Source of the DNA: Acidobacteriota bacterium
GTDB taxonomy: Bacteria; Acidobacteriota; Vicinamibacteria; Vicinamibacterales; UBA8438
DNA length: 64,000 nt
Direction of reading: 5' to 3'
Assembly (NCBI GenBank): GCA_026708265.1
Contig: JAPOVI010000156.1
Location: forward strand, 38,831-102,830
A program made the translations under genes and the position numbers. The notes beneath the pieces were generated by a model. The model searched no databases. It saw nothing but the letters and a program-made list of their open reading frames with translations, and was not told the origin of the DNA. This document shows, in pieces, positions 10,316 through 58,264 of the stretch. Numbering within the stretch: position 1 is the first letter of the stretch; every line of letters begins with the position of its first letter.

Positions 10316-10318
10316 GGG

Positions 10319-14153: not shown

Positions 14154-14545
14154 GCGGCGTCCGGGAACCGCCTCGGCTCAGCGCTCGAACTCGGTACGCT
14201 CCCGGGGAACGAGAACGGGCTGGCGCGCTCGACGATCCTCTCCTCGAACGGCAGCCCGCCGAGGGCGACGTCGATGCCGACGCCGGAAGCGGCGCGCAGC
14301 AGCAGCACGCGGTTCGCGCGGGCGAAGCCGGCCGCGTCGGGGATCCGGCCGTCGTAGCGGTCCAGCAGGGCCGTGACGAACGGCTCCTCTCCGCCGAAGC
14401 CGGTCACGAGGGTGACGTTGACGTCGACCGTCTCCCGCGGCTCTCCCCAACGCTGCAGGGCCAGGCCGCCGATGAAGCAGAAGCGCCAGCGCCGGGCCTC
14501 GCAGAAGGCCTGCAGGTCGGCGGCCACCCTGATCAGCTCAATCAC
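14147..14545 (-). pseudogene. C-terminally truncated nucleotidyltransferase (toxin-like)
   Basis: 132 residues in frame. FCFIGGLALQRWGEPRETVDVNVTL matches the nucleotidyltransferase core of the AbiEii/MNT-like families (GG-x(n)-D-x-D-type signature, here degraded to VDVNV). GVGIDVALGGLPFEERIVERASPF is the usual next segment. Family members then continue with a (C/S)xxEDLVxxKxFAGRxRDWxD helical half, which is missing. After SFPG the frame runs into unrelated sequence and stops inside the convergent propeller gene. The gene begins with GTG at 14545, overlapping the upstream stop in a GTGA, as expected of a toxin-antitoxin pair. The protein is probably non-functional or only a remnant. Confidence 0.65.
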
Positions 14546-17036: not shown

Positions 17037-17120
17037 CACAAGCCCTCCTTCAGCCCGGCTTCGTCGACCTCGGAGCGGGGGATGAAGGTTCCGAACGGAG
17101 TGCTGCGCCACGACCTGCTC

Positions 17121-23200: not shown

Positions 23201-23279
23201 CGCGCGGCACGCTTCGTGCGTAACTCCGGCCTGACGGCGGGTGGTTGACCGCAGACCGCGCCGCTATGCAGACGCCGGA

Positions 23280-25697
23280 ATGTCGCTGACCGATATCGTC
23301 TACCGCACCGACGAGGCGGGGCTCGAGCCGCTTCTGCGCTCGATCGACCGCGCGGGGGACTATTGCACCCACGGGCGGTCGTTCTACCCCATGCCGCTCA
23401 TCTCGGTGGACGAGGTCGGCGTGCTGTCGTTCCCGGTGCCCGAGGCGCAGATCCGCGCCCTCGTCGCCGTGGCGGAGCGCGCTCCCTACGGCCGCGGATC
23501 GGAAACGCGCGTGGACACATCCGTGCGCAACTCCTGGCAGCTCGACGCGGCGCGCGTGCACGTGGGAGGCGGCGCGTGGCCGGGGACGCGGTCGCAGATC
23601 CTCGAGGCGGCCGCGCGGGGGCTCGGCTGCCCTCCCGACCGCCTCGAGGCGCACCTCTACAAGCTCCTGGTCTACGAGCCGGGCGGGTTCTTCGCGGCCC
23701 ACCGGGACACGGAGAAGATCGACGGCATGGTCGCGACGCTGTCCGTCTCGCTGCCCACCCCAGGCACCGGCGGCGCACTGGCCGTCCGCCACCGGGGCCG
23801 GGAGACCGTGATCGACATGAACGCCGCCGAGCCCTCGGAGCTGGCGTACGCGGCCTTCTACGCCGACTGCGAGCACGAGACGCAGCCCGTGCGGGAGGGA
23901 CACCGGCTGTCGCTGGTCTTCAACCTCCGTGTGCGCCCGGGAGACGACCCGGCCGCGGTCCGCCCGCCCGACCACGCCGAGCGGGTCGCGGCCATCGCGG
24001 AGCGTCTCGGCGGCCTGGGCGGTGACGCAGGGGGGGACAAGCTCGTGTGGCTGCTCGAGCACGAGTACACGCAGGCCGGCCTGTCGTTCGACACGCTGAA
24101 GAACGCCGACGCGGCCGTCGCGCGAGCGCTCGGTCAGGCCGCCGCGCGCGCCGATTGCGCCATCCACGCCGCCATCGTGCAGATTCGCCGGCGGGGGGGC
24201 GCGCGGGTCGAGGACGACTACATCGATAGCTGGAACGTGACCGATTACGACGCCGCCGACCTGGAGATGGACGACGAGTTCGACGCCGATCAATGGCTCG
24301 ACGGGTGGGCGTCCCCGGACGGCGGGCGGCCGGCATTCGAACGCATCCCGCTGCTCCCGGGCGAGCTGCTGCCCCACGGCGCCCTCGACGGCGCGGATCC
24401 CGACGAGCAGCGGCTGCGGGAAGCAACGGGCAACGAGGGGGTGACGCTGGAGCGGACGTATCGCCGCGCCGCCCTCGTGGTCTGGCCGCGGGCGAGGACG
24501 CTGGACGTGATGATCAGCGCCGGCACGGCACGCGCCGTCGCCTGGGTGACCGGGGAGCACGAGCGCCGGGATGCCGGGTCGGGAGACCGCACCGAGAAGC
24601 TCGTCGCGCGGCTGATTGACGTCTGGCCCGCAGACGACGACGGTCCGTCCGCGCGGGCCTCGCGTCTGAGCGACTTCTGGCCGGACCGGGGGCCTCGTCC
24701 CGAAGAGTTGGCCCGCTGCGGCATGCTCCGCCTGCTCGTGGCAGTCGGGGACGCATCCCTCGGCGTCCGGTTCCTGCGCCGCGTCGTCCTCGCAGACTAC
24801 AGCGGCCGCGAGAACGAAGACTTGCCGGCCGCGTTCGGCCTGGTCGGACCGCACTCCACCGCGGAGCTCCTGCCCGAGCTCTCGAAGCGCCACTTCGCGG
24901 ATCTGCCCGAGGACGTGCTGGAGCTCCAGCGCCGGGTGGACGATCTCGAGTCGGCGGACCCTGCCTGGCGCGGCGCGGTGCAGGCCGCCCTGCGGACCAC
25001 CTTGCAGGCTGCCGCCGCGGCGGTGGAGGCGCGAGCCGCGAGCCGGGCGCGGGCGTGGATCTTCGACCCACGCCCCTTGGAAGGGCGCTTCGTCCGAACC
25101 CTGTTCGGGATGGCGTGGCGCCACGGCCTGATCGAGGAGGCCGAGGCGGCAGGGGAAGCCATCGGACGCCATCCGAAGGCCGTGTCGCCCGACCGCGCGC
25201 TCCCGGCAGCGTTGCGGGACCTGTACCGGGAACCCGGCCTCGCGGCTGCCCCCGCCTACGTCGGTCTGTGGCGGACCGCCGCCGGGGCGCTCCTGGCGCG
25301 CAGCTCCACGCCCCCCGCCGGGCCCCGCGACTGGAGCATCGCCGCCGACCTCTCGTGCGACTGCGAGCTGTGCCGGAGGCTGCGGAGCTTCTGCGAGGAC
25401 CCCGGAACCCGACAGGCCCGCTTTCCTCTGCGAGAGGACCTGCGGGCTCACCTCGACAACGTCATCCGAGAGCACCGGCTCGACCTCGATCACGAGACCG
25501 AGCGGCAGGGGGACCTCCCCGTCCTCGTCTGCACCAAGAATCGCGCGAGCCACGAGCGACGCGACGCCGAGTACCGGGAGGACGTCTCGTGGATGCAGTC
25601 GCTCCTCGACTCGGTGCCGCGCCGGGCCGCTGTGGAGATCTGCCCCGCTGAGGGGACGCGACTGCGCCAGGCGGTCGCGGCGGCGCCTGTCCGCTGA
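23280..25697 (+). CDS. Large 2OG-Fe(II) oxygenase family protein
   Basis: 805 residues. The N-terminal ~220 residues form a prolyl-4-hydroxylase-like double-stranded beta-helix: KLLVYEPGGFFAAHRDTEK supplies His141 and Asp143 of the iron triad, and YADCEHETQPVREGHRLSLVF supplies the distal His199 and the 2-oxoglutarate-binding Arg. The remaining ~580 residues are of unknown fold, mostly helical, with a cysteine cluster SCDCELCRRLRSFCEDPGT near residue 700 that could bind zinc. It is cytoplasmic, as there is no signal peptide. The ATG at 23280 was chosen over the GTG at 23241 because family alignments begin close to the catalytic domain. No operon partner is evident. The substrate is unknown; a protein or nucleic acid is possible. 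Confidence 0.8.
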   Translation: MSLTDIVYRTDEAGLEPLLRSIDRAGDYCTHGRSFYPMPLISVDEVGVLSFPVPEAQIRALVAVAERAPYGRGSETRVDTSVRNSWQLDAARVHVGGGAWPGTRSQILEAAARGLGCPPDRLEAHLYKLLVYEPGGFFAAHRDTEKIDGMVATLSVSLPTPGTGGALAVRHRGRETVIDMNAAEPSELAYAAFYADCEHETQPVREGHRLSLVFNLRVRPGDDPAAVRPPDHAERVAAIAERLGGLGGDAGGDKLVWLLEHEYTQAGLSFDTLKNADAAVARALGQAAARADCAIHAAIVQIRRRGGARVEDDYIDSWNVTDYDAADLEMDDEFDADQWLDGWASPDGGRPAFERIPLLPGELLPHGALDGADPDEQRLREATGNEGVTLERTYRRAALVVWPRARTLDVMISAGTARAVAWVTGEHERRDAGSGDRTEKLVARLIDVWPADDDGPSARASRLSDFWPDRGPRPEELARCGMLRLLVAVGDASLGVRFLRRVVLADYSGRENEDLPAAFGLVGPHSTAELLPELSKRHFADLPEDVLELQRRVDDLESADPAWRGAVQAALRTTLQAAAAAVEARAASRARAWIFDPRPLEGRFVRTLFGMAWRHGLIEEAEAAGEAIGRHPKAVSPDRALPAALRDLYREPGLAAAPAYVGLWRTAAGALLARSSTPPAGPRDWSIAADLSCDCELCRRLRSFCEDPGTRQARFPLREDLRAHLDNVIREHRLDLDHETERQGDLPVLVCTKNRASHERRDAEYREDVSWMQSLLDSVPRRAAVEICPAEGTRLRQAVAAAPVR

Positions 25698-28175: not shown

Positions 28176-29835
28176 GTGAAGAAGCGCAGGCTTCCGACCG
28201 GCATCCAGAACCTCCGCCAGATCCGCGAGGAAGGCTACTACTACGTCGACAAGACCCGCTACGCCCGCCGGATCGCGGAGGACGCCGGCAAGCACTACTT
28301 CCTGTCCCGCCCGCGCCGCTTCGGGAAGAGCCTGTTCGTCGACACCCTCAAGGAGCTGTACGAGGGCAGCGAACCCCTGTTCCGCGGTCTGGCGGTCCAC
28401 GACGCGTGGGACTGGTCGAGGCGGCGGGCGGTGGTGCGACTGAGCTTCGCCGGTGGCAATTTTCCGGAGGCCGGGCGAGCTGCAGGCCAGCGTCATGCAG
28501 CAACTCGCCGGCGCGGAGCGTCGGGCCGGGCTGCCGGCGTCACAGGTCCCCACACCCGCGGGGCGCTTCGCGAGCCTGCTGGAGGCACTGCACGAACGCA
28601 CCGGCGAGCGGGTGGTCGTCCTGGTGGACGAGTACGACAAGCCGATCCTGAACGCACTGGAGGGGCCGGCGCCGGCAACGGACGTGCCTCGGGGGACGTC
28701 CGCCGCCCCCGACGCACAGGCGACCGCCAACCGCGACGATTTGCGCGGGCTCTACGGCACGCTCAAGGACTGCGACGCCCACGTCGAGCGTACGTTCCTC
28801 ACCGGGGTCAGCAAGTTCTCCAAGGTCTGCCTGTTCTCCGACCTCAACTTCCTGACCGACCTCACCCTGGACCCGCGCCACGCCGCCGTCTGCGGCTACA
28901 CCGAGGCGGATCTCGACGCGGTCTTCGCACCGGAGCTTCCCGGCCTCGATCGCGGGCAGATCCGCGCCTGGTACAACGGGTACAACTGGCGCGGCACCGA
29001 GAGCGTCTACAACCCCTGGGCCATCCTGCACCTGTTCCAGAGCCGCGAGTTCAAGGCCCACTGGTTCGAGACCGCCACCCCGCGCTTCCTCGTCGACACG
29101 CTGATCGAGCGCGGCTTCTCCGCTCCCGATCTCGAAGGGCTGCACGCCGACGACGACCTGCTGTCGGCATTCGACGTGGCGTCGGTGGGGACCGAGGCGC
29201 TGCTGTTCCAGACGGGCTACCTGACGATCGCCGCCGAGGAGGAGCTGGACGGATACACGCAGTATCGCCTCGGGTATCCGAATCGGGAGGTGCGGCGCGG
29301 CCTGAACCGCGGTCTGCTCGACGCCCTGGCGCCGCGCTGGCGGTCGGCGGGCAGCGGGGTCGCGCTCCGGCGGCTGCTGGCGGCAGGGGACTGGACCGGC
29401 CTGGAGGCACTGTTCCGGTCGTTCCTGGCGTCCATTCCGCACGACTGGCACCGGCGGAACGAGATCGCCCGCTACGAGGGCTACTGGTCGAGCGTCTTCT
29501 ATGCCTGGTTCCAGGCGTCGATGGACGGCGTGGCAGTGGAGGACACCACCAGCCGCGGGCGGCTGGACATGGCGGTCGTCCTGGGCGACGTCGCCTGCGT
29601 GTTCGAGTTCAAGGTGCGCGAACGCGCGGCGCGGGGCGCTCGGCCGGGGAGCACGGCCGAGAACGCCCCATCGACGGACGGCGCTACCCCCGCGGACCGA
29701 TCCGCGCTGATGCAGTTGAAAGCGCGCCGCTACGGGGACAAGTATCGGGCCCCGAACCGCACGGTCTACCTGATCGGCGTCGAGATCGGGGCCGAGTCGC
29801 GCGACCTCACGGCCTTCGACGTGGAGCCGGCCTGA
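28176..29835 (+). pseudogene. AAA-ATPase-like / DUF1703 (PD-(D/E)XK) protein, frameshifted
   Basis: Two adjoining frames together give the usual ~550-residue protein. Frame one starts MKKRRLPTGIQNLRQIREEG and has the P-loop-like FLSRPRRFGKSLFVDTLKEL. After LSFAGGNF the family sequence continues in the +1 frame as RRPGELQASVMQQLAGAERR, then VVVLVDEYDKPI (Walker B-like) and RTFLTGVSKFSKVCLFSDLN. The C-terminal DUF1703 part has RLDMAVVLGDVACVFEFKVR, a D...EFK nuclease-like motif. The break is at the TTTT run 28460-28463; removing one T restores the frame. This family is widespread, often in many copies per genome, and may be a mobile or defence nuclease. Either it is a real disruption or a sequencing error. 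Confidence 0.8.
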
Positions 29836-30433
29836 CTTCGCTGGCGAGCGGCGCGTTGGTCCGTCCGAAGCGGCGCCGCGGGCATGCGGGTGCGGAGACG
29901 GAACCTGTGTTTTGGCAGAGCCTCGACCCACATGCGGTGCGATGCGGAGGCGGGAGGCGTCGCGCCCATGCGGCCGGATTGCGCCTGTCGCTCAATTGAC
30001 ACCAACAGCTAGCCTGTTGTCTCCATAGAGCCACACCTGATCCGATAGGGTACGGGAGTTGTTGAGAGCCCAACCACTCCTGCAGGTGGTGTTCCGCCAT
30101 ATGCCGGCGTCACCCTTCGCCGTTGGCGCTCGCCGAACTTGCCCCGCAGTCTTGCCCGAGAGAGCAGGGGAGGTCGCAACGAGCGTGCGACCAGTCTGTC
30201 GAAGGAGCGCCGATACGGGCCGGGCCGACCGCTCTCGGCGACCGTCGCGTCATCAAGGAGGCGCAGCCGAAGGGTCGAGTGCTGCGGGTACGCCGCTCAG
30301 GTGGGCAGACACCACGCTGCATTCGCGCGGCCAATCGTGGACTTCACAGCCACCACTGGTTGGCGTCGAAGTCAGCAAGAGCGGAGCGGCTGTCGCTTGA
30401 GCGTCAGCCGCCCCGGTATCGCGAGAGGGTGAA
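29836..30433. other. Intergenic region upstream of the six-gene motor/cytoskeletal locus
   Basis: About 600 bases, less GC-rich in the middle than the flanks. Short reading frames exist on both strands, but none has codon use or motifs of a real gene. It contains a perfect TTGACA (29996-30001) and, immediately after, the inverted repeat CAACAG-CTAGC-CTGTTG (30003-30019), described separately. No good -10 hexamer sits 16-18 nt past the TTGACA. It may hold the promoter and control region of the downstream operon, or decayed sequence left by an insertion. Confidence 0.5.
29996..30019 (+). promoter_or_regulatory. TTGACA followed by a perfect inverted repeat (possible operator)
   Basis: TTGACA at 29996-30001 and CAACAG/CTGTTG arms (30003-30008 and 30014-30019) around CTAGC. 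The repeat would lie in the spacer of a promoter, where a repressor could block polymerase. The lack of a matching -10 box makes this tentative. Confidence 0.3.
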
Positions 30434-30799
30434 GTGGTTTCGGGTGCTTGGTGTAACGACCCCGGCCGTGAGTGGGACTTGCTCATCGTCTCGGTCGTGA
30501 TCGGCACGTTCGCAGCCTTCGTGGTCGCACTGTTTCGCGGTCGCCAGCTGGAGCGCTGGGATCTACGCAACTCACTGGTCGCACCCTCGACGGCCGCGAT
30601 CCTGTGGACGGTGGCGCTGAGCGCCGTGATCCCCGCCGCCCTGATGTCGCTGTCGGTGTACACGGCGGAACCGTGCGCCCCGGCCCAGAAGACGGCGAAC
30701 GTCCTGTATCTGTGGGCCGGCGCCCTGGTCGGCGTGGCCGTGTGCTTGTTCGGCTTGGCAATCGCGAACCGACGGTACGCGAGAGGCAGCAGGCGTTGA
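30434..30799 (+). CDS. Small three-helix membrane protein, first gene of the motor/cytoskeletal locus
   Basis: 121 residues, GTG start. Three hydrophobic helices lie at about residues 15-34 (DLLIVSVVIGTFAAFVVALF), 52-74 (STAAILWTVALSAVIPAALM) and 90-110 (VLYLWAGALVGVAVCLFGLA), with a basic tail RRYARGSRR. It resembles no family I recognise. It could be a membrane anchor or regulator for the giant protein encoded next. Its TGA overlaps the TTG start of that gene (TTGA at 30796), so the two are translationally coupled, supporting a joint role. The six-gene locus continues on the same strand to 40690. Confidence 0.65.
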   Translation: MVSGAWCNDPGREWDLLIVSVVIGTFAAFVVALFRGRQLERWDLRNSLVAPSTAAILWTVALSAVIPAALMSLSVYTAEPCAPAQKTANVLYLWAGALVGVAVCLFGLAIANRRYARGSRR

Positions 30800-33700
30800 G
30801 TAACACCCTGGTCGTTTGTGGCGGAACCGGTGCGCACGTAGCGCTCGCGCTTCTGCGGTTGCACACGCTCGGCCATGCGCTCGGGTTCTTTCGCCACGCG
30901 GACGACAAACCGCTCGCCTTCCCGACACTCTACCTCGTGGACCAGGACTCCGGGGACGGCGCCCGCGAGGCAACCGCCTGGCAGGAGGCCAAGCGGTTGG
31001 TTGCCCGTCACCCGGGGCGACACGATTGGAACCTGGCGATCGGCCGCTCCGATCCTCCCGAGCGCAAGGTCGTCACGCCGCTTCCCATAGGCAGCAAACG
31101 AACTTGGTTCGATCCGCCGTTCGACACCCTCAGGCGGCGCTTCGCGGACTCGCCCTGGCTCGATCTGCTCACGTCGCAGGGACAGCGCGGCATCCGCTTC
31201 TCCCACGGGATGATGGGATCGCCGGCCGTCGGATCGCTGCTGTTCCGTCTGAAGGACTTCGACAGGAAGCAGAGCGGCACCAATCACGACGGCGCCTACC
31301 ACGAACTGCTGAGCGCGCGCGGCCGGGTGGCGGTGGTCGGATCCGCGGTCGGCGGCACCGGCGCCGCCGTGGGACCGACACTGGCGCAGCGGCTTGCCGA
31401 CTCCGGCGCCGCCGTGATGGCCGTCATGGTCCTCAACTGGTTCCGGTTCGATCCCGAAGACCTCGACGAAGAGACCCTGGAGAAGGCGCAACTCCGCGAC
31501 CGCTCCATGGTCGAGAACGCCAACTCCGCGTTCGCCTACTACGGCAGCCAACTGGCGCGCCGCGTGGCCACCGTGCCGGTCGGGGTGCCCGACGCGGCCG
31601 TCAAGCTGCGACGCTACACGTCGGACACCCGGCAACCGATTCAGGAGTCCCTCGTCCATGGGGTCGCGGCGCTCTGCACGCTGCAGCACTTCCTCGCCGT
31701 CGAGCCTCCTGGGCCCGGCCTGTACCAGATGGGAGCCGAGGACCCAGCCCGGCTGGGCGGCGGCAACCGTCTTCCCGGCCGGACCGGCGACGACTCGGTC
31801 CAGAGCCTTGCCAACCAGGCGGCGACGCTCGCTGACGTGCTCGACGTCTTCGCGGGCGCATTGGCGGCTCGGCACAGCGGCGCCTGGCTCGGCGTCGCGC
31901 CGGCCATCCATGACGCGACCAGGCGCATCGCCGCCCCCGAGCGGGTCGGCGACGCGCTGGGTCGACTGGTTACCGAGTACCGCGAGCATCTGGACTGGAT
32001 GGAGAGGGTGCTGGGCGTACGGCCACAGCCCGACGAGTCGCTGACGCCCGAAGCGCGGTCGCGCGCCAGGCTCGCCGGGCATGACCTCGAGCCGGCGGCT
32101 CGGGCCGACACTTCCAGGGAGGATGCCGCAGCGCTAGCGCTCTTTCACTGGACGGCGGACTGGATCGCGGATTGGAGCCGTGAGGAGGACAGTGCCAGCC
32201 TCATCGTTGCGCCCGCCCGTTCCCCCGGCGGGGGCTACTGGCCACCTCTGGTGGGCCCAGACAGCCTCAACGTCTCGGTGGAGCACGCCGGGACGTTGAC
32301 AAGGGTGGCGGATCAGAGCATCCAGGGCACCGTCGAGGGCTTCATCGTCGACGATCGCGTCACCGAGAACGGGTGGCCCGACCCCCTCGCCGCGGCCGAC
32401 CACTTCCGCTACGCCATCCTGCGCGAGCAACCTGCCGCGCGCCGGCAACTGGAGATGCTGCTCGCAAGCATCGTGATGGGCAAGCTGAGGTTGCGCGAGG
32501 TCCGGCGTCCGGCGTCGCCCCCCACCTTGTCGCTCGATCACCTCGTGGACGAGGCTCGCACCGGGCGCGCCCCGGACATCGCGAGCGTGGCGCTGGTCTA
32601 CGGGCGCGAGGACGACGCGCTCGTCCTTGGCTTCAATTCGCCCTACACGCTGCTCTGCCCGACGCCCACGGATCGGTCCGACGAGGCGCGCGAGAACGCC
32701 TGGGGCAGGTTGTGGCAGACCCTGACCGGTTCGGACCGACCCCGCGACTGGAGGACGGAGGAGATCGAGTGGCGTCACGCCCGGAGTGCCATCCGTCAGA
32801 TTCGCGCATGGATCGAGGCCGAGAAACGGGCGCACGGCGGCGCGCCCCCGCCGTGGACTTCCATCTTCCAGACCGGGTCGGCGCCGCCTTCCGTGCCGTT
32901 CGGACGCGGGCGCGCACTGACCGTGTACTGGGACCCCGGCGCCGAACCGCCGCCCGTTACCGTGTGGCTGCCGACCGCGGAAGCGGGCAACTACTGGCCC
33001 GACGGCGACACGCTGCGGATCTCCGAAGACGAGCTGCTGGCGCGGGAGTCCGCCGTTCGGACGCTGCAATCCGGGGCCGGGGTGCAGTTCGAGATGGTGG
33101 AATTCGAGTTGCCCGACCGCGAAGCCCGCGTGCGAGCCTTCTGGAGAGAACACCTCGAGCAGCTCCAGCAGAGCGGCGCCGTAGCGGCCTTCGGGGCCAG
33201 GCCAGATGATCGCCAGGTCGCCTTCTTGACCGCGGACCGGCGCGCCGCGGCGGTGCTGGACAACGTCATCGTCCTCGACCGTGACGTCATCATGATCCGG
33301 GAATGCTGCCCGATGCGGCAGACACCCGTTCAACCCGTCACGCCTGGGCGGATCCTCTATCCCAATTACCCGTTGCGTTCCGACTACGCGGCCCTCGTGG
33401 AAACCGATGACGGCCGCTGCGTCGTCGACCTGCTCAAGGACGGGGAACGGGTTCCCCCGTCTCAGCCATCCGTTGACGACGTGCCAAGCGGGAGAGCCGC
33501 CGGCCGCGGACCACGCGAGCAGACGGTGGAGGCCGCCCGCAGGCTGGTTTCCGAGGGTCGCCGCGTTATCGACCGACTGTGGCGCGGAGAGTCGTCCGCG
33601 GCGGAGCGGCCGCCAGCCGACTACGAGCCCGCGCGGCAAGAGGCAAGGGCGACCTGGAGTCTGCGTCTCGCAGGCCGCAGCGACCGAGTCGGGATTACCC

Positions 33701-35877
33701 TCCCGGTCCCGTCGGCCAGTGCTCCGGACGCCCAGGTCGACCCACACCGAGCGCACTGGATGGTCTGGCCCCGGTTCCGTTCCACCACCGCCCCGTACTG
33801 GCGCGCCTACTACGTCTACGAACGCTGTACCGACGCCCGACTGCACTTGCGGACGCTGTGGCTCGACCCGGACCACCAGCGTCTTCGTCGCGCGGCGCTG
33901 TCCCGAACGGGGTCGCAGCCGATCCGGTTCGCTCCCGACCAGCAGCGCGTCCACACGGGGGGTCCCCCTCTCGCGTTCAGCCTCGAGAACGGGTTGTCCG
34001 GCCAGGAGTTGGGGCTCTACGTGATCAACCTCGATCGCCTGCCCCGAAGGGATGCGGACGTCAAGGTCGGGCTCGACTTCGGCACGTCCCATACGGTCGC
34101 CGCGGTGGAGACGGAGGGCGAGAAGCACCTCGTGGAGTTGACTTCCGAGCTCACTTCCGACGCGCGTCACGCACTCACGCACCACGTCAGCGAAGACCGG
34201 ACGCACGTAATGGACGCCTACGACGACGATGGCCTGAAGGCGCTCGGCATATGGCAGCCCACGTACACGGACGCCCCCGTCCAGAAGGAGCAGGCGGGGC
34301 TGTTGCCCGCGGAGCTGCTGACGATCGAGACGATCCAGGAGCTGGTGAGGCTGCACGGCGATCGTGTCGCGCAGTGGCAACCTGGCCGGGACTTCGTCAT
34401 CCCCTACATGGACATGCAGCGGCGCGACCTCGCCGACCACCTGCTGTCCGATTTCAAGTTGGAGTCGTCGGTTCGGGCCTTCCAGGGTCAGGAACCCGCG
34501 CTGCGGGAGGTCTACCTCGGCATGGCCACCGAGCTGGTGATGGCAGAAGTGGTCTGGCGCCGGCTGCACGCGCTGCCGGAGCGGGTCGACTTTACGTTCA
34601 CCTATCCGCTCCGCTCGCCCCGCGACGAGGTGAAGGGATGGGAGCGTACGGTGCGCAGCGTGCTGGACAGCGGTGGGCAGAGCCTCGGCTCGACGCTGCA
34701 ACTCGCCAACGATATCGGAATCTACAACGAGTCGAGCGCCGCGAAGGGGGGCACGCACCGTTTCGGCGAGGTGTGTCTGGTGGGCGATCTGGGAGGGGGA
34801 ACTCTCGACCTGTTCATCTCGGCCTACGGCGGTCCGGGGGTCGAGTTCGAGGAAGTGGCGGACAGCGCGAAGCTCGGCGGCAATGCGCTGCTGCGCACGA
34901 TGGCCGAGCATCCCGATCGCTTCCTGCCGCACGACTGGACACAGGCCAACGACGTCAACACGCTGCTGCGGGCGTGGATGCGCTCGAAGGGGGCCGCGCG
35001 GCTCTTCGGTGACGGCACCACTCCCAGAGAGCGCCTTCCCGGGCTTGACGTGAGAGGCTTCGCCCAGCCCGGGGACGCGACGGCGGCGCGGGCGCTGATC
35101 GGCCGCTACTTCCGTCTGATCGTGGAGTACATGTCGCGGAATCTGGCGGCCTACCTCGTCCGCCACTGGTATCCGCGGGTGTTGGAGAGCCGCCCGGAAG
35201 ACCACGGTGTGCTCCGCGTCCTCGTACAGCTTCGCGGCAACGGATGGCGCCTGTGGCACGAGACGGACGACTATGCGGCGATCGAAGCGAAGATCGCGGC
35301 GGACGTCGGGGCGCGGACCGCCGAGCTGTGGCGCGATCGCGCCGGCCATCGGGACGCCTGGCGCGGTCTCGACTTGTGGCGGACGCACCTCTGGACGACC
35401 GCCGGGGAAGACGGGGGCGGACCGGCAGTCGGGCCGCCGAAGTGCGCGCCGGAAGGGTCGCGCGCCCCGAATCCCAAGGCGGCGCCGATACTGAACGTCG
35501 TTGGACTGGCGCAAAGGCACGACGAGATCCACTGCTCCCGCTACGCGCTCGTGCAACTCGCCGTGCGGACCCACCCCGCGCCGGCGGGCGGCGGTTCGCG
35601 GACGATCCACTGGTTCGACAGGCTCCCGGTGGACACCGGGGGCGGCACGGTCAAGGTCGAGTTCGACAGCATCGAACCACCGTTGTCGTTGAGTCACCCG
35701 CAGGCCGCCCCGGAGGCCCGCCAGGAGCTCGACGACCTCGAACCGGAACTCAAGCGCGAGATCAACCGCGCTCTCGAGAAGGGCTACACGGGGGAGGTCA
35801 ACTACAGCGCGCCGATTGCTGAGCTCGTTTGGGAGAGAGCATTCAGATCCCGGCGTTTCGTGCGGGGCGAGCGATGA
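30796..35877 (+). CDS. Giant fusion protein: N-terminal tubulin/FtsZ-like and C-terminal Hsp70/actin-like domains
   Basis: 1693 residues, TTG start. The N-terminus NTLVVCGGTGAHVALALLRL has the glycine loop that opens tubulin/FtsZ-type GTPases. GRVAVVGSAVGGTGAAVGPT (about residues 177-196) resembles the tubulin signature GGTG(S/T)G, most like the bacterial Tubulin_2 group. Residues ~420-1085 have no known domain. The C-terminal third has DVKVGLDFGTSHTVAAVE (phosphate-1 loop, about 1088-1105) and GEVCLVGDLGGGTLDLFIS (phosphate-2 loop, about 1325-1342), then DSAKLGGNALLRTM, as in Hsp70/actin-like ATPases. There are no membrane helices, so it is cytoplasmic. Both nucleotidase signatures appear in one uninterrupted frame. 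Stop overlaps the next ATG. Domain calls are from motifs only and need structure prediction. Confidence 0.8.
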   Translation: MSNTLVVCGGTGAHVALALLRLHTLGHALGFFRHADDKPLAFPTLYLVDQDSGDGAREATAWQEAKRLVARHPGRHDWNLAIGRSDPPERKVVTPLPIGSKRTWFDPPFDTLRRRFADSPWLDLLTSQGQRGIRFSHGMMGSPAVGSLLFRLKDFDRKQSGTNHDGAYHELLSARGRVAVVGSAVGGTGAAVGPTLAQRLADSGAAVMAVMVLNWFRFDPEDLDEETLEKAQLRDRSMVENANSAFAYYGSQLARRVATVPVGVPDAAVKLRRYTSDTRQPIQESLVHGVAALCTLQHFLAVEPPGPGLYQMGAEDPARLGGGNRLPGRTGDDSVQSLANQAATLADVLDVFAGALAARHSGAWLGVAPAIHDATRRIAAPERVGDALGRLVTEYREHLDWMERVLGVRPQPDESLTPEARSRARLAGHDLEPAARADTSREDAAALALFHWTADWIADWSREEDSASLIVAPARSPGGGYWPPLVGPDSLNVSVEHAGTLTRVADQSIQGTVEGFIVDDRVTENGWPDPLAAADHFRYAILREQPAARRQLEMLLASIVMGKLRLREVRRPASPPTLSLDHLVDEARTGRAPDIASVALVYGREDDALVLGFNSPYTLLCPTPTDRSDEARENAWGRLWQTLTGSDRPRDWRTEEIEWRHARSAIRQIRAWIEAEKRAHGGAPPPWTSIFQTGSAPPSVPFGRGRALTVYWDPGAEPPPVTVWLPTAEAGNYWPDGDTLRISEDELLARESAVRTLQSGAGVQFEMVEFELPDREARVRAFWREHLEQLQQSGAVAAFGARPDDRQVAFLTADRRAAAVLDNVIVLDRDVIMIRECCPMRQTPVQPVTPGRILYPNYPLRSDYAALVETDDGRCVVDLLKDGERVPPSQPSVDDVPSGRAAGRGPREQTVEAARRLVSEGRRVIDRLWRGESSAAERPPADYEPARQEARATWSLRLAGRSDRVGITLPVPSASAPDAQVDPHRAHWMVWPRFRSTTAPYWRAYYVYERCTDARLHLRTLWLDPDHQRLRRAALSRTGSQPIRFAPDQQRVHTGGPPLAFSLENGLSGQELGLYVINLDRLPRRDADVKVGLDFGTSHTVAAVETEGEKHLVELTSELTSDARHALTHHVSEDRTHVMDAYDDDGLKALGIWQPTYTDAPVQKEQAGLLPAELLTIETIQELVRLHGDRVAQWQPGRDFVIPYMDMQRRDLADHLLSDFKLESSVRAFQGQEPALREVYLGMATELVMAEVVWRRLHALPERVDFTFTYPLRSPRDEVKGWERTVRSVLDSGGQSLGSTLQLANDIGIYNESSAAKGGTHRFGEVCLVGDLGGGTLDLFISAYGGPGVEFEEVADSAKLGGNALLRTMAEHPDRFLPHDWTQANDVNTLLRAWMRSKGAARLFGDGTTPRERLPGLDVRGFAQPGDATAARALIGRYFRLIVEYMSRNLAAYLVRHWYPRVLESRPEDHGVLRVLVQLRGNGWRLWHETDDYAAIEAKIAADVGARTAELWRDRAGHRDAWRGLDLWRTHLWTTAGEDGGGPAVGPPKCAPEGSRAPNPKAAPILNVVGLAQRHDEIHCSRYALVQLAVRTHPAPAGGGSRTIHWFDRLPVDTGGGTVKVEFDSIEPPLSLSHPQAAPEARQELDDLEPELKREINRALEKGYTGEVNYSAPIAELVWERAFRSRRFVRGER

Positions 35878-36908
35878 CAGGGCGGACGATCGCTCATCTC
35901 GGCCTGGGTTGCGGGGGCGCCTGCCTGGTCGTCGTCGCGGTGCAACTGGGCGGCGCACCCGACTGGCTTCCGAGCATCGACTCCCCTCCGACGAACCGGG
36001 AGGTCCTCGGCATCGGGGCCGTCACGGTGCTGGGAACGGTTCTCGTTGCAGTCGGCGTCGTCGGCCTGCTGCTGGACACTGGCGTCTTCACCGCGGCGAC
36101 TCGGCAGGCAGCCGAGCGGGACGGCTCGCGCGGTCATCCCGCCGCGCAGGTCAGCGCGGCGACAGCGGCAGACCGTCGGGCCCCTTCGGAGATCCTCGAC
36201 TCACCCGCCCGGCTCGACGCGGTCGAGCCTCCGACGAAGCGAACCGTGTCAGAACGGCTCGCGGCCCGGGCGCCTGCGGATACGGCGCCTCTGCCCCGAG
36301 CGGACGGACAGCGCGCGTGGGCTTCGGAGCGCCGCGCGGCGGAGTCACGCAAGGACGCCGAGCGCACCGACGATGATCGACCTGCCGGCCGGCAGGGCCG
36401 TGCGCCTGGGGAGAACCGCGTGGGGCAGCACCAGGTGGGCGAGCCCGCTGCGGTGCGCCACGACGCAGCGGAGCCGGAAACTGCCGCTCAGGAGGGGCTG
36501 GAGGAGGTGGTCAGGTCGCCGCCACAGGCCGACCTCTCCCCATCCGTGCCCGTGCCGCAACCCGGGGATCTCGTTGCGGCCTGGGACGATTACCGGCGCA
36601 CCGGCGACGGCCACTTCAACGCCCGCGGTCTGCAACGTGTGCTGGACGAGCGGGGAATCGGGGCCACGGTTGGCGGGGGTGACCGGATCGCCGCCGGCGG
36701 CAGCGTGCTGATCGTCGAAACGCCGTCCCGCCAGGCGCATTTCTACGTCCTGCCCAGCTTCGCCAAGTCGCCGCGCGCGGTGGCGGATTGGTTCGACGAC
36801 GGCAGCAGCGGGGTCCTGACCGGACGGACGGAGCGCGTGCTCCAGATCGCAGAGGGCCGGTGGACCCGCATGGGTTTCGAGGTGACGAGCCGCGGCCAAG
36901 TGGCGTAG
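35874..36908 (+). CDS. Two-helix membrane protein with charged linker and conserved-looking C-terminal domain
   Basis: 344 residues. Helices at about 5-27 (TIAHLGLGCGGACLVVVAVQ) and 44-67 (VLGIGAVTVLGTVLVAVGVV). Residues ~75-235 are rich in Arg, Glu, Ala and Pro and probably disordered. The last ~110 residues (LVAAWDDYRRTGDGHFNARG, VLIVETPSRQAHFYVLPSFA, GVLTGRTERVLQIAEGRWTR) look like a small folded alpha/beta domain, probably cytoplasmic. No named family is recognised. Its ATG overlaps the stop of the giant protein gene (ATGA at 35874). A 70-base gap separates it from the vWA-like gene, the only gap in the locus. It may connect the cytoskeletal-type protein to the membrane. Confidence 0.65.
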   Translation: MTGRTIAHLGLGCGGACLVVVAVQLGGAPDWLPSIDSPPTNREVLGIGAVTVLGTVLVAVGVVGLLLDTGVFTAATRQAAERDGSRGHPAAQVSAATAADRRAPSEILDSPARLDAVEPPTKRTVSERLAARAPADTAPLPRADGQRAWASERRAAESRKDAERTDDDRPAGRQGRAPGENRVGQHQVGEPAAVRHDAAEPETAAQEGLEEVVRSPPQADLSPSVPVPQPGDLVAAWDDYRRTGDGHFNARGLQRVLDERGIGATVGGGDRIAAGGSVLIVETPSRQAHFYVLPSFAKSPRAVADWFDDGSSGVLTGRTERVLQIAEGRWTRMGFEVTSRGQVA

Positions 36909-36978
36909 CGGGCCGGGCGGAGGCGGCGCGAGGGGCGGCACTCGGCGGCGGTGATCGGAGTCTCAGGCGAAGGCGACC

Positions 36979-38451
36979 ATGGCTGACATCTCGCGTTCTG
37001 CTGTCCTGCTGCCCCTCACGGCGGTGGCCGCGATCCTCCTGGCGCTCGTGACCATGGAATGCGCTGGCGACGGCGGTGACGCCGCCCCCGTCGCCACCTT
37101 GCCAGACCGGGATACCGCCGCCAGTCCAGAATGGGACGAGCCGCCGTCCACCGAGCCTCCCGAGCGCACGGAGGAACCGAGCGTCGTCGAGGTGCACCTC
37201 GACGTCTCCCATCCGATGGCCGGCTTTCTGCCGCTCCCCTCGCGCCAGGACGATCTCTCCACCTTCCAGATCGTCACCCAGAACGTGGCGCAGCACATGG
37301 CGCGTGTCTACGGGAGGGCCGGCGGCATCGAGGTCCGCTGGCGCGGTATCGGCCATGCGCTCGGCCCCCTGCCCCAGTCGCCGCGCCTGCGACCCGCCCT
37401 GTTCGACGGGCGGTCCACGCGGCTCGATCTCTCGATCGCGAGCATGCTGCGCGACTTCCTCAGCGGCCGCGCGGAGGCGGCGGCCCTGGTCACCGACCTC
37501 ATGGCGACCGGCGAACGCACGGGAGTCACCGGACCGTTGTCCGTCGCCAATGCCCTCGGCGAGTGGCTGCGGTCAGAGGACGTGCGCTCCGGCGTTTTTC
37601 ATGTCGGGCTACTGGGGGTTAAGGCCGAGTACCGTGGCGTCACCGATGCCGCGCGGTGCCCGCCCGGGCCGCCCCTCGGCTGCTGGTACGACGAGCGGTT
37701 GCCAGGATTCCGGCGCCTCGACAGCGTGGCGCGGATCCCTTTCTACGTGCTCGTGCTCGGCCGGGGAGCGGACTCCATCACCTCCGTGCTGGCGTCCCTG
37801 CAGCGCGGCGCGGTCGAGCTCGATCCTGACGCCGAGGTGCAGTGGGAGCTGCTCACGCGGCGCTCGCTGGGCTTCGACACAGCCCTGTCCTGCACCGCGG
37901 GCGAACAGTACGCGCTGTTCGTCGAGCCGCGACAGCAGTATCGCTGCGTGCGGGACGACCGCGTCACCCTGTCGTGCGGCTTCGAGAACGGATTCCGGCC
38001 GGACGCCGGCCGTGGGACGTGGAACCGGACGCCGGCGGACGGCCCTGGTGACGGACGGGCGCCTGCCGGTCCGGAAGTTGGGGCCTCCGCTCCGGTGGCG
38101 GCGCAGTTGCCGTCGCCCATCGACCTGCGCGTCGACGGAGCGCGACTCGACGTCGACCTCGATTGCGCACCGCTCCGCGCGTTCCGCTCTCCGGATGCCG
38201 TTCTGGCGCTGCGTCTCGACGTCACCGGAGGGGTCGACGAACTGACGGCCGACTGGCGCGTCAGGCCCTGGGCGCAGCGGTCCACGGGCGATGGCGCGAC
38301 GGACAACGCGGCCGACTGGAGCGACTGGTCGACCGAACTGGGCGTGCTGGGGAAGACGGTGCACCTCGACGGCTTTCTCCAGACCGTGCGCATCGAGCCG
38401 GACGGGTACCGGGTCGAGTTGCCGGCCGTCCTCCGGTTTCCGGGATCATGA
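36979..38451 (+). CDS. Exported or membrane-anchored vWA-like protein
   Basis: 490 residues. One N-terminal hydrophobic helix (VLLPLTAVAAILLALVTM) is followed by a proline- and acid-rich linker. Then VVEVHLDVSHPMAGFLPLPS (Asp75, Ser77) opens a von Willebrand factor A-like fold with a degenerate MIDAS (DxSxxM rather than DxSxS). ALVTDLMATGERTG (Asp173) fits the later strand that usually supplies another MIDAS residue. The C-terminal half has paired cysteines (CRCVRDDRVTLSCGFENG-like region) and beta-rich segments typical of extracytoplasmic proteins. VTMEC is a poor lipobox, so a membrane anchor is more likely than a lipoprotein. Its stop overlaps the ZorA-like ATG (ATGA at 38448). It may bind the motor in the periplasm. 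Confidence 0.65.
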   Translation: MADISRSAVLLPLTAVAAILLALVTMECAGDGGDAAPVATLPDRDTAASPEWDEPPSTEPPERTEEPSVVEVHLDVSHPMAGFLPLPSRQDDLSTFQIVTQNVAQHMARVYGRAGGIEVRWRGIGHALGPLPQSPRLRPALFDGRSTRLDLSIASMLRDFLSGRAEAAALVTDLMATGERTGVTGPLSVANALGEWLRSEDVRSGVFHVGLLGVKAEYRGVTDAARCPPGPPLGCWYDERLPGFRRLDSVARIPFYVLVLGRGADSITSVLASLQRGAVELDPDAEVQWELLTRRSLGFDTALSCTAGEQYALFVEPRQQYRCVRDDRVTLSCGFENGFRPDAGRGTWNRTPADGPGDGRAPAGPEVGASAPVAAQLPSPIDLRVDGARLDVDLDCAPLRAFRSPDAVLALRLDVTGGVDELTADWRVRPWAQRSTGDGATDNAADWSDWSTELGVLGKTVHLDGFLQTVRIEPDGYRVELPAVLRFPGS

Positions 38452-40076
38452 CCCTGCTCGATCCTGTCCTGGGGACCGTTCTTCTGCTGCAGGCCGGCAT
38501 CCTCGTACGCTGCGTGTTTCTCGCCCACGCAGACGACTCGCAAGCCCTCGACAGCCTGTGGAACAAGTTCAGGCGTGACGTCATCGGACGGGCGAGTCGC
38601 GGCGACGGCCCCGACTGGGTGCGCTACATGGACGAAGCGGACCGTGTCCACGAGCGACGTATCGACAGGATGCGAGTCTGGGCAACCGCGGCGCTTGTCG
38701 TGGGCATCGGCGGCACGATGGCAGCGCTGGCGCTTCGTCTCACCGGAGTCAGCATCGACCAGGAGTCGTCGGACGCCGCGCTCGGAGGGCTCATGGCCGC
38801 GGTCGGACCCGCGCTGCTGGCAAGCCTCAGTGGCGTCGGGAACAACATCCTGATTACGCTGGCCCTGTTTCACTGGTCGGATCGGCGCTTCGGGGTCTAC
38901 CTGGACGAGTTCCGCAACGCGATTGAGTCCTGCAGCGTCGAGCATCCGCCGCACGAGAAGTTCGCGAGCGCGGTCCGCGATCAGCTCGGCATTGCGTTCC
39001 GTGAGGCGGTGCAGACGTTCCCCGACGCCTTCGCGAGGCTGGACGAGAGCGTCACGGCGTTGGGGGAGGTCACCGAAGCGCAGTCGAAGGCGGTGCTCAA
39101 AGCCGCGCGCGAACTGAAGCGGAGCGCGGACGGCTTGAGTGAGGCGGCGTCGGAGGTCGCGCCGGCGGCGGGGCTGCTGCGGTCTTCCATCGACCGGTTG
39201 CGCGCCCTCCCTGACCAGCTTGCTCAGACCCTCAACGAGACGCACGCCCGATGGGAGAAAGCAATCCGCCGCGACCAGAACTCCTTCGTCGAAGGCGTCA
39301 AACAAGTGCTGGACAGCCAGCAGGATCTGCTCGAAAGCACGCGGAGCTCCTTCGAATCGTGGGAGCGGCAGCGGGGAACTACTGCCGCGGAGCAGAAGGC
39401 GGAGTGGCGCGACGCAATCGCTCTGCTGCAGAAGTCCGCATCGGAGATCCTGGCCACCGTTGAAGGCTTGCCCGCCACGTTTTCGCGGGAGGTCGAGCGC
39501 ACGGCCGACACGATGGGCAGGCAGTTCGGTCTTGAGGCCCGGCAACACGTCGAGGACCTGACCAGAGCCGTCCGCGACGGGAACGACAACTTGCGGGAGC
39601 AGGTCGGCGAGACCGCGAGAGACCTGCAGAATCGTTTCCTGGACGACACCGCGAGGGTAGTAGCCGAGACGTTGACGCGCGTGCACCGCGACGTCGAGGG
39701 TACTTTGCTGGCCTCCCTGAAGGAGGTCGGTGAGGGTCTACGCGAAGCGCTGCGCACGCTCCCGGCTAACGCCACGACCTTCGCCGCCAGCCTGTCGACG
39801 GCTGACGAGAAGCTCCAGCGGTCGATCGCCCGGCTCGCGGAGTCCGCCGCCCACCTGGACCGCATCGCCGGGCTCACGGAACAGTTCGAGGCCTCCCTGA
39901 CGCGGGCGCTCCAGGACGCAACGGCCCGCAGCTTCGAACCTCTCCGCGGCCAGATGCAGGAGATCGTGATGGAACTGCGACGCTCAGCGGGCATCCCCGA
40001 CGCGCCGAGGGGGTGGTTGGGCCGCCTTTGGCGGAAGCTCACGGGGCACGGAATCCGCTACGACGACGTCACATGA
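38448..40076 (+). CDS. MotA/ZorA-like proton channel subunit with long helical tail
   Basis: 542 residues. Hydrophobic helices at about 3-24 (LLDPVLGTVLLLQAGILV), 78-102 (WATAALVVGIGGTMAALALR) and 117-144 (LGGLMAAVGPALLASLSGVG, NNILITLALFHW). VGIGGTMAAL and GLMAAVGPALLASLSGVGNN are the paired channel helices of the MotA/TolQ/ExbB superfamily. The remaining ~395 residues are almost entirely helical and charged, a long cytoplasmic tail as in ZorA of the Zorya defence system. ZorA forms a pentamer around two ZorB chains and turns ion flow into rotation. The start overlaps the vWA-like gene and the stop overlaps the ZorB-like gene (ATGA at 40073), as expected for fixed stoichiometry. No flagellar gene is nearby. 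Confidence 0.8.
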   Translation: MTLLDPVLGTVLLLQAGILVRCVFLAHADDSQALDSLWNKFRRDVIGRASRGDGPDWVRYMDEADRVHERRIDRMRVWATAALVVGIGGTMAALALRLTGVSIDQESSDAALGGLMAAVGPALLASLSGVGNNILITLALFHWSDRRFGVYLDEFRNAIESCSVEHPPHEKFASAVRDQLGIAFREAVQTFPDAFARLDESVTALGEVTEAQSKAVLKAARELKRSADGLSEAASEVAPAAGLLRSSIDRLRALPDQLAQTLNETHARWEKAIRRDQNSFVEGVKQVLDSQQDLLESTRSSFESWERQRGTTAAEQKAEWRDAIALLQKSASEILATVEGLPATFSREVERTADTMGRQFGLEARQHVEDLTRAVRDGNDNLREQVGETARDLQNRFLDDTARVVAETLTRVHRDVEGTLLASLKEVGEGLREALRTLPANATTFAASLSTADEKLQRSIARLAESAAHLDRIAGLTEQFEASLTRALQDATARSFEPLRGQMQEIVMELRRSAGIPDAPRGWLGRLWRKLTGHGIRYDDVT

Positions 40077-40690
40077 GACGCTCGCGCGCACCAATGACGG
40101 CGTGGCCGGCGTTCGCCGACCTCATGACAATCCTCGCCGTGGTTAGCTTGGCGATCGCGGCGGTAGTCGTCAGAGGCGGCCCAGGAGACGAGGGCGCCCC
40201 CCGCCATCAGATCGCCGAACTGCGAAGCCAGTTGGCCGACGCCCACGCGACGATCACGGAACAGCGCGACCGAATCCGGGAATTGCAGCTTCGGCTCCTG
40301 ACCGGGGGCGCCCTGCCGTGCCTCTGGGAGCCCGGCCCGCCGATGGCAATCGTGTCACTACTGCGGATCGTCGTGGCGTCGGATGCGGAGTACGTGCTTA
40401 TCCGGTTGTGGCCCCCTGGACGCGACGCCGATGTCGCCGCCATCCCGGGGCTCGCCGACGCCGTCGAGCAGAATCGAATGAGCGTGGGAGAGTTCGAACG
40501 GTACGCCGGTGCGATCTATCAGCACGGGAACCGCGCCGACACGTTCGAAGGTCCGTGCCGGTTCTTCGTCGAACTCAAGCAGGGCGGGACCGAACCTCTG
40601 GCGTTCCCCGCCGCCCTCGGCGTCGTAAACCAGTACTTGCTAATCTCGAATGCGGCGGAAGTGAACAGGATCCTCCGCGGCGAGGACTGA
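40073..40690 (+). CDS. MotB/ZorB-like channel subunit lacking an OmpA domain
   Basis: 205 residues. The N-terminus MTAWPAFADLMTILAVVSLA has the W..FxDLMT pattern of MotB/ZorB; Asp16 at the start of the single membrane helix is the expected ion-carrying residue. A coiled coil follows (HQIAELRSQLADAHATITEQ, about 43-72). The C-terminal ~120 residues (SDAEYVLIRLWPPGRDADVA, YAGAIYQHGNRADTFEGPCR, FFVELKQGGTEPLAFPAALG) are not an OmpA peptidoglycan-binding domain, which MotB and ZorB normally carry. Stator anchoring must therefore differ, perhaps through the vWA-like protein. This is the last gene of the locus; 209 bases separate it from the Uma2-like gene. Confidence 0.75.
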   Translation: MRRSRAPMTAWPAFADLMTILAVVSLAIAAVVVRGGPGDEGAPRHQIAELRSQLADAHATITEQRDRIRELQLRLLTGGALPCLWEPGPPMAIVSLLRIVVASDAEYVLIRLWPPGRDADVAAIPGLADAVEQNRMSVGEFERYAGAIYQHGNRADTFEGPCRFFVELKQGGTEPLAFPAALGVVNQYLLISNAAEVNRILRGED

Positions 40691-57933: not shown

Positions 57934-58264
57934 CCGCGAGGCGCTGCGGGCGCCCGGCACGCGTCGGCATTCGGGCGCGCTCGAGCGCCTTCCCCTCGTC
58001 GTCGCGGTCCGGGTCGCCCACGTCCTGCATCCGGGACAGCAGACCCAGCGCCCAGAGCGCACCCAGGTGGGCAGCGACGCCGGTGGTCGCCTTCCCCCTC
58101 TCGACATCGGCGATCACGAAGCGCGACACCCCCACCCGCTGCGCCAGCTCTTCCTGTGTCAGCCGGCGCCGGAGCCGCGCGATGCGGATGTTGCGCCCCA
58201 GCCGTTCCAGCGCGTCCTGCACGGCGGCAGGCGGCGATTCGGCGATCCGGGTGCGGCTCGGCAT
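57923..58264 (-). CDS. HipB-like Xre-family antitoxin
   Basis: 113 residues. IRIARLRRRLTQEELAQRVG followed by VSRFVIADVERGKATTGVAA is a typical Xre helix-turn-helix. The N-terminal 20 residues and the C-terminal DPDRDDEGKALERARMPTRA are less conserved, the latter probably contacting HipA. It overlaps the hipA start. A strong promoter with an inverted repeat in its spacer lies immediately upstream, as expected for an autoregulated antitoxin. The ATG at 58264 is only about 14 nt from the -10 box, so the leader is very short. Confidence 0.85.
   Translation of the reverse strand: MPSRTRIAESPPAAVQDALERLGRNIRIARLRRRLTQEELAQRVGVSRFVIADVERGKATTGVAAHLGALWALGLLSRMQDVGDPDRDDEGKALERARMPTRAGRPQRLADDF

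What the first reader, a model, noticed from the sequence alone, without database searches (positions are those of the whole stretch)
30434..40690. Six-gene locus combining two cytoskeletal-type nucleotidase domains with a MotAB/ZorAB-like motor
All six genes are on one strand, and four of five junctions are 4-base start/stop overlaps (TTGA, ATGA, ATGA, ATGA), so the products are almost certainly made together. The set is a 3-TM protein, a tubulin-like plus Hsp70/actin-like giant, a 2-TM linker protein, an exported vWA-like protein, a ZorA-like channel with a long helical tail and a ZorB-like channel. I know of no named system with this composition. Zorya shares only the ZorAB part and lacks ZorC/D/E partners here. 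Inference: an ion-driven motor whose force is passed to, or gated by, nucleotide-dependent cytoplasmic assemblies; defence against phage or a secretion/motility role are both possible.
Basis: partly seen in the sequence, partly recalled or inferred. Interest (0 to 1): 0.95.

Follow-up and report, generated by a model that had tools for sequence, protein, structure and literature searches.

The report
Ion motor wired to tubulin–Hsp70 giant
Six neighbouring genes, five of which keep the same order in bacteria of several phyla, encode a giant protein with a predicted tubulin-like part and a likely Hsp70-like part, next to a likely ion-driven membrane motor and a predicted periplasmic adhesion-type protein, so they would likely form one machine that links the cell envelope to an assembly inside the cell.

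Summary
Six genes at 30434-40690 lie on one strand, with four 4-base start/stop overlaps and one 70-base gap. The cassette is real. A scan of one genome per species returned 12 loci (Vicinamibacteria, Holophagales, Thermoanaerobaculia, Rhodothermales/Bacteroidetes, Gemmatimonadota). In all 12 the detectable genes keep order and strand. All 8 whose contigs span the cassette have g1, g2, g4, g5 and g6; g3 was found in 3 of the 12.

No named system in the papers searched has this composition. Zorya, FtsZl1/Tubulin_2, GTPase-centred systems and vWA force transducers each share one part. Distribution is sporadic and some copies look broken, so it is probably accessory. My best reading is an envelope-to-cytoplasm machine, perhaps phage or stress defence. 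Function is untested; one lineage (L019/L020) sits among defence genes.

The parts
30434..30799 (+). g1: small membrane protein, 3 predicted TM; overlaps g2 by TTGA
   Evidence: an iterative profile finds it in 13 of 14 loci searched, upstream of g2; the miss is the broken L022 (= L015), where tblastn sees only a fragment
30796..35877 (+). g2: 1693-aa protein without TM (predicted cytoplasmic); residues 1-543 predicted FtsZ/tubulin fold, middle region of unassigned fold, residues about 1060-1693 Hsp70/actin-type domain
   Evidence: fold; Hsp70 profile matches; family and motifs
35874..36908 (+). g3: 2 predicted N-terminal TM, variable linker, conserved C-terminal domain of about 110 aa; found in only 3 of 12 related loci
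36979..38451 (+). g4: predicted exported (in many relatives lipobox-like) protein with a vWA-like domain (about 64-277) and a beta-sandwich (about 297-490)
   Evidence: loosely defined lipobox match in 42 of 76 N-terminally complete homologues, not in the window's own copy
38448..40076 (+). g5: ZorA/TolQ-like protein, 3 predicted TM followed by a helical tail of about 410 aa (predicted cytoplasmic)
40073..40690 (+). g6: ZorB/MotB-like protein; TM helix with conserved Asp (residue 16) in TxWPAxADLMT; C-terminal domain with two conserved Cys and no OmpA match seen

Best explanation
The cassette likely encodes one envelope-spanning machine in which a predicted ion-driven ZorAB/TolQR-type motor (g5/g6) is coupled, probably through the long tail of g5, to a giant protein (g2) that carries a predicted tubulin/FtsZ fold and a likely Hsp70-type ATPase domain, with a predicted periplasmic vWA-like protein (g4) as its outer contact. 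Shown here: gene order and strand are conserved in 12 of 12 loci as far as the contigs reach; g2/g5 and g2/g6 identities fall in step across 7 loci; the nucleotide-site motifs of both g2 domains and the g6 membrane Asp are kept almost without exception; and the system is sporadic, with some copies that look broken. Inferred: g5 and g6 form a 5:2 ion channel; g4 and the g6 Cys-pair domain lie in the periplasm and sense or grip something there; opening of the motor turns or pulls the g5 tail and changes the GTP/ATP-dependent assembly state of g2; g1 and g3 anchor g2 at the membrane. I commit to an accessory surveillance or defence role (about 0.4) over a transport, motility or surface-structure role (about 0.3). 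g2 would then act as the nucleotide-controlled switch or effector platform in place of Zorya's nucleases.
Against: No motor structure was predicted. PF01618 is under its cut-off for g5, MotB_plug finds nothing in the window's genome, and the profile-profile values for g4, g5 and g6 are low in themselves. HMMs of the g5 core and g6 N-terminus did not separate common MotA/MotB proteins from background significantly (best E 0.56, not a MotA frame by its alignment, and 1.7, a MotB). In the PDB lists unrelated rows outrank ZorA/ZorB: coiled-coil fusion proteins, a designed helical protein, photosystem subunits. No experiment shows that the products interact; g5-to-g2 coupling is topology plus co-divergence only, and two close pairs of loci drive much of the correlation. 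Clear defence neighbours were placed in one lineage, without a background control. There is no recognisable nuclease or toxin in g1-g6. g4 lacks the canonical DxSxS (it has DxSxP[ML]). The catalytic T7 loop of the tubulin domain was not examined at residue level.
Confidence: 0.5

Rival explanations
1. A trans-envelope force or transport machine: cytoplasmic tubulin/Hsp70-type assembly and the ion motor together drive the periplasmic vWA protein for adhesion, gliding, surface assembly or export, not defence.
For: vWA proteins tied to TolQ-type motors have been proposed as force transducers, including in Rhodothermota (PMC12204202, passages). g4 is a vWA-like plus beta-sandwich protein whose structural matches include pilus tip proteins and adhesins.
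Against: Sporadic distribution, copies that look broken, and distant phyla with the same cassette fit an accessory module better than a housekeeping organelle. No pilin, adhesin or outer-membrane channel was recognised among g1-g6.
Confidence: 0.3
2. A divergent member of the NTP-dependent systems with tubulin, HSP70 and vWA parts (FtsZl1 operons, GTPase-centred systems), in which the motor replaces the GTPase/GAP1 module.
For: PMC7159879 (passages) describes tubulin, HSP70 and vWA proteins as recurrent parts of one predicted class; PMC2875224 describes FtsZl1 + vWA + OmpA operons. Profile-profile links the g2 N-terminus to Tubulin_2 at 86%. Here the tubulin and Hsp70 parts are fused.
Against: No P-loop GTPase, GAP1 or FNIII protein was recognised in g1-g6. 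PF13809 does not hit g2 or its 27 aligned homologues at E 0.1. In PMC7159879 tubulin and HSP70 belong to different, non-overlapping themes, and MotA, TolQ and ExbB have 0 occurrences in its main text.
Confidence: 0.2
3. A new Zorya type: ZorAB-like motor whose downstream effectors are replaced by g2.
For: g5 hits PADLOC ZorA models (best 1.4e-7); g6 aligns with ZorB at the ion-carrying Asp; a long helical tail is present, as in ZorA.
Against: The best ZorA stretches lie on residues 172-507, the helical tail, not the channel. NCBIfam ZorA scores 26.9 against a cut-off of 190. No OmpA domain (PF00691) among the precomputed Pfam domains of 115 g6 homologues or the 25 of 27 families shown, and no ZorC, D, E, F or G in the cassette.
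Confidence: 0.15
4. The six genes are neighbours with separate functions.
For: g3 was not found in 9 of 12 loci, one of which (L011) ends soon after g2.
Against: The other five keep order, strand and often start/stop overlaps across distant phyla and GC contents of 0.43-0.72.
Confidence: 0.03

Closest known systems
Zorya (ZorA/ZorB motor; PMC11890865, passages read)
   Same: Adjacent ZorA-like and ZorB-like genes, a long helical tail on the A subunit, conserved membrane Asp on the B subunit, Thr/Ser in the A-subunit TM2/TM3
   Different: No OmpA-type peptidoglycan-binding domain detected on g6, no ZorC/D/E/F/G, ZorA models far below cut-off; partners are a tubulin-Hsp70 giant and a vWA-like protein
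FtsZl1 / Tubulin_2 (PF13809) operons (PMC2875224, abstract and parts 1-2 of 5 read)
   Same: Divergent FtsZ/tubulin domain in a large protein, genes for a vWA protein and membrane proteins beside it, predicted membrane role; profile-profile 86% to Tubulin_2
   Different: g2 is not recognised by the PF13809 model itself, has a C-terminal Hsp70-type domain in place of coiled coil, and no P-loop GTPase or kinase was recognised in the cassette
GTPase-centred (GAP1-N2) conflict systems with tubulin or HSP70 (PMC7159879, passages read)
   Same: Tubulin, HSP70 and membrane-bound vWA proteins as parts of one predicted class
   Different: There tubulin and HSP70 are separate genes in separate themes, with GTPase, GAP1 and FNIII proteins; none of these were recognised here; MotA, TolQ and ExbB have 0 occurrences in the main text
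vWA force transducers beside TolQ/TolR-like motors (PMC12204202, passages read)
   Same: A vWA-type envelope protein encoded next to a 5:2-type motor
   Different: No tubulin or Hsp70 partner in the passages seen; there the vWA protein is tethered by a TM helix, here g4 has a single N-terminal hydrophobic segment, in many relatives with a lipobox-like Cys
CoCoNuT systems with Hsp70-like domains and VWA (PMC11090510, passages read)
   Same: Hsp70-like NBD fused to a large protein, VWA genes nearby, predicted defence
   Different: McrB-type GTPase and nuclease core; no tubulin ('tubulin' has 0 occurrences) and no comparable motor in the passages seen

Membership tests
Zorya | ZorA recognised by curated models over the channel region | tested here: not met
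   NCBIfam ZorA 26.9 bits against 190; best PADLOC stretches fall on residues 172-507, the helical tail
Zorya | ZorB with TM Asp and an OmpA-type peptidoglycan-binding domain | tested here: not met
   TM Asp met (111 of 111 with the region), but no PF00691 among precomputed domains of 115 homologues, none for the window's g6 at E <= 1, and no ZorB match in PADLOC; peptidoglycan binding itself not testable
Zorya | ZorC/D, ZorE or ZorF/G effector genes in the cassette | tested here: not met
   0 PADLOC families for g1-g4 and g6 at E <= 1. A ZorD/DpdE-like SNF2 helicase lies near the L019 cassette
MotA/TolQ/ExbB channel superfamily | PF01618 match and three or four TM | tested here: inconclusive
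   3 predicted TM; PF01618 16.3 bits, E 0.0082, under the cut-off of 22.9; TM-core profile aligns with ZorA 8vvi_F at E 0.28, below photosystem hits; profile-profile 3% over 91 columns, best of five families
MotB/ExbD/ZorB superfamily | single N-terminal TM helix with ion-binding Asp | tested here: inconclusive
   Motif and Asp conserved; profile hits to ZorB 8qyd_F at E 0.32-0.81 and 8vvn_B at 0.38, not the top rows; no MotB_plug match in G000; profile-profile 11%, best of five families
FtsZ/tubulin superfamily | FtsZ/tubulin fold with GGTG-type loop | tested here: met
FtsZl1 / Tubulin_2 (PF13809) | PF13809 match | tested here: not met
   No PF13809 match in 28 of 28 proteins at E 0.1 and none in G000. 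Profile-profile against three Tubulin_2 proteins gives 86%, E 4.7e-6 for one template, so distant kinship is likely
Hsp70/actin (ASKHA) superfamily | Phosphate-1, phosphate-2 and adenosine-type motifs in order, profile match to Hsp70 | tested here: met
   Profile-profile 95%, 210 columns; PDB profile best E 0.0011, 59 of 60 rows shown named Hsp70/DnaK; motifs in 94-95 of 95. No structure of this domain was predicted
vWA domain | vWA fold | tested here: met
vWA domain | MIDAS motif DxSxS...T...D | tested here: not met
   DxSxP[ML] in 79 of 85 and [TS]DL[ML] in 81 of 85 homologues; last Ser replaced by Pro
GAP1-N2 GTPase-centred systems | P-loop GTPase plus GAP1 plus FNIII proteins | tested here: not met
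   No such Pfam/NCBIfam match in g1-g6; GAP1 models as such were not searched for separately

The most novel reading that the evidence does not exclude
This is the first known machine in which a proton- or sodium-driven 5:2 motor directly controls a cytoskeletal-type polymer whose single subunit carries both a tubulin and an Hsp70/actin-type nucleotide switch, reporting envelope injury read by a periplasmic vWA protein.
Probability: 0.25. Interest if true: 0.95.

Novelty: categorically new. Interest (0 to 1): 0.74.

Why it matters
If right, it joins three things so far known apart: ion-driven rotary motors, tubulin/FtsZ GTPases and Hsp70/actin-type ATPases. It would give a direct test of whether a membrane motor can drive or gate a cytoplasmic nucleotide-dependent assembly, and it would extend the Zorya logic (motor senses, tail signals) beyond nucleases. 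It also names a protein architecture (tubulin fold plus Hsp70-type domain in one chain) for which I found no description in ten searches of the held papers; most subscription papers are not in that library.

Tried and rejected
Ordinary-explanation checks: g1-g6 against Pfam, PADLOC and NCBIfam gave no named system. Plasmid and phage records gave no match for g2, and a pattern scan of viral contigs none.

Profile-profile comparison in the box: the first two builds were faulty, because loci of the genome search keep the genome's strand and I read many matches on the wrong strand; one search also skipped 21 of 89 family members. They gave 92% and 3% for Tubulin_2 and low values for the rest. One search repeats the test with all 89 members on the right strand and replaces them. 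An HMM of the g5 core or g6 N-terminus against 2722 open frames gave nothing significant; the g6 top row was a MotB protein at E 1.7. The g3 profile gave only weak calmodulin rows (best E 0.12). The middle of g2 (about 544-1060) was not folded alone, so nothing is said on its fold.

Defence enrichment: genes at the very start of a stretch were left out, then of 78 called neighbours in 9 loci 73 were scanned (5 dropped: four at the ends of the fetched stretches and one of 61 aa). PADLOC at 1e-5 gave 70 families, 25 shown. Of 20 neighbours then scanned one by one, 2 hit at 1e-10, both in L019. By coordinates the AIPR match and the AbiU match are one protein beside the L019 cassette, with AIPR also beside L020; the Cas12f match is a TnpB-type frame in L012; the PDC-M72A model matches L022:9645-11249 but also 119 places in that genome, so it says nothing. 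Hits to C3a212, Ankyrin and the 45 families not shown were not placed. No background set was scanned, so enrichment is not claimed.

Papers: PMC2875224 (abstract, parts 1-2 of 5), PMC7159879, PMC9871819, PMC11890865, PMC12505986, PMC12204202, PMC11090510 (passages only). The Nature Zorya paper (PMC11946911) is not held; that E. coli ZorB Asp26 is the ion-carrying residue is recalled.

Full report
1. What is there. The window lies in a 6.55-Mb draft genome of 446 contigs. A relative of the same family (G014) has a contig of 32407 bases that appears to be the one of L009, a record titled Vicinamibacteria bacterium, so the host is probably a Vicinamibacteria (Acidobacteriota) species. Six genes follow each other on the + strand with four 4-base overlaps and one 70-base gap.

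2. A conserved cassette. One scan of one genome per species returned 12 loci for g2, in records titled Vicinamibacteria, Acidobacteria, Holophagales, Thermoanaerobaculia, Rhodothermales, Bacteroidetes/Bacteroidota and Gemmatimonadota. Tblastn and an iterative profile search of open frames show the order g1-g2-(g3)-g4-g5-g6 in every locus as far as the contig reaches: 12 of 12 consistent, 8 of 8 spanning loci with g1, g2, g4, g5 and g6 (L009, L012, L014, L016, L017, L018, L019, L020; the last two are close relatives). L010, L011 and L013 end inside or before g5, and L015 (= L022) starts at g2 with a g1 fragment. g3 was found only in L010, L017 and L018; L011 ends too soon after g2 to tell. Pairwise identities in 7 loci correlate between the five genes with r 0.66-0.99; two close pairs drive much of this. 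GC of the loci is 0.43-0.72. L010 (Rhodothermales, GC 0.55) is nearer to the window in g2 (48-59%) than the Holophagales locus (43%) or the other Rhodothermales loci (33-35%), which suggests transfer between phyla, although mis-binned contigs cannot be excluded.

3. Distribution. Among 100 relatives, 4 genomes match, the window's own included, and one of these (G024) holds only the start of g2. In a phylum sample, 2 of 396 match, own included. No match in plasmids, phages or viral contigs. In the protein collection 130 homologues of g2 were scored at E <= 0.001; that search scored only the 7990 candidates sharing most words.

6. g5 and g6. g5 has three predicted TM and a long helical tail. Its channel core keeps a Thr in TM2 and a Ser in TM3 in 9 of 9 sequences, as expected for the polar ring described for ZorAB and MotAB (PMC11890865, passages). 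g6 starts with TxWPAxADLMT; the Asp is present in 111 of 111 homologues that include the region, the other 4 of 115 starting later. ZorB 8qyd_F aligns over equal-length spans at that Asp, and ZorB 8vvn_B and ZorA 8vvi_F appear in the lists (identified as Zorya structures in PMC11890865). These hits are weak by E-value and are outranked by unrelated rows; the exception is the g5 tail (8vvi_F E 2.7e-4), where helical similarity is expected and apolipoproteins score higher. Profile-profile puts the g5 core nearest MotA_ExbB (3%, 91 columns) and g6 nearest MotB (11%) among five families. The motor reading is therefore likely, not proven.

7. Mechanism. Topology puts the g5 tail and g2 on the same, cytoplasmic side, and g4 and the Cys-pair domain of g6 outside (inferred). 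The simplest machine is a motor whose opening or rotation is controlled from the periplasm and read by g2, or the reverse. The sporadic distribution, copies that look broken (L018, L010, L022/L015, L023) and one lineage embedded among an SNF2 helicase (ZorD/DpdE-like, 2.6e-139), a methyltransferase-like gene and an AIPR protein lean towards defence or conflict, without proving it.

8. Known neighbours in idea space. Zorya shares the motor; FtsZl1 operons share tubulin + vWA (+ OmpA); GTPase-centred systems share tubulin, HSP70 and vWA as separate genes; vWA force transducers share motor + vWA. None has, in what I read, a tubulin-Hsp70 fusion or a motor with such a partner. I therefore rate the system categorically new in composition, with known parts and unknown function.

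Noticed in passing
L019:1501-7753 and 21679-23547 (AIPR also in L020): The cassette of this Rhodothermales lineage is flanked by an SNF2 helicase (ZorD/DpdE-like), a type II methyltransferase-like gene and, downstream, an AIPR protein, i.e. a defence-gene setting.
   Followed up: partly
L018:8447-13107 and 15106-17076; L010:440-5141; L022:536-7329: Copies that look broken: g2 read in two frames (L018, L010), g5 interrupted (L018), g2 and g4 interrupted or truncated (L022 = L015). MAG errors are possible.
   Followed up: partly
L023 (G024:C102:66210-66759): A remnant with g1 and only about the first 184 residues of g2, inside a long contig, next to other genes.
   Followed up: no
L014:9045-9635 and 9743-10378: Two g6-like frames in tandem after g5, seen in none of the other loci searched.
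   Followed up: no
L012:2109-3338 (-): A TnpB-type frame (Cas12f model) about 6.6 kb upstream of the cassette, in a genome with 30 such matches.
   Followed up: partly
window 28176-29999 (+): Open frame whose residues 7-95 match AAA-ATPase_like (PF09820, E 2.6e-28), just upstream of the cassette.
   Followed up: no
window 57923-58222 (-): Small HipB/XRE-type DNA-binding protein (PDB HipB E 5e-06).
   Followed up: no
window 14147-14527 (-): Possible AbiEii-type nucleotidyltransferase fragment (E 0.1).
   Followed up: no
window 35874-36908, C-terminal part of g3: Conserved domain of about 110 aa with a DGHF motif; only weak calmodulin rows (E 0.12), so an EF-hand-like loop is a guess.
   Followed up: partly
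G014:C184:18954-19346 (L026): The same-family genome that also holds the cassette has a separate weak Tubulin_2 match (35.8 bits).
   Followed up: no
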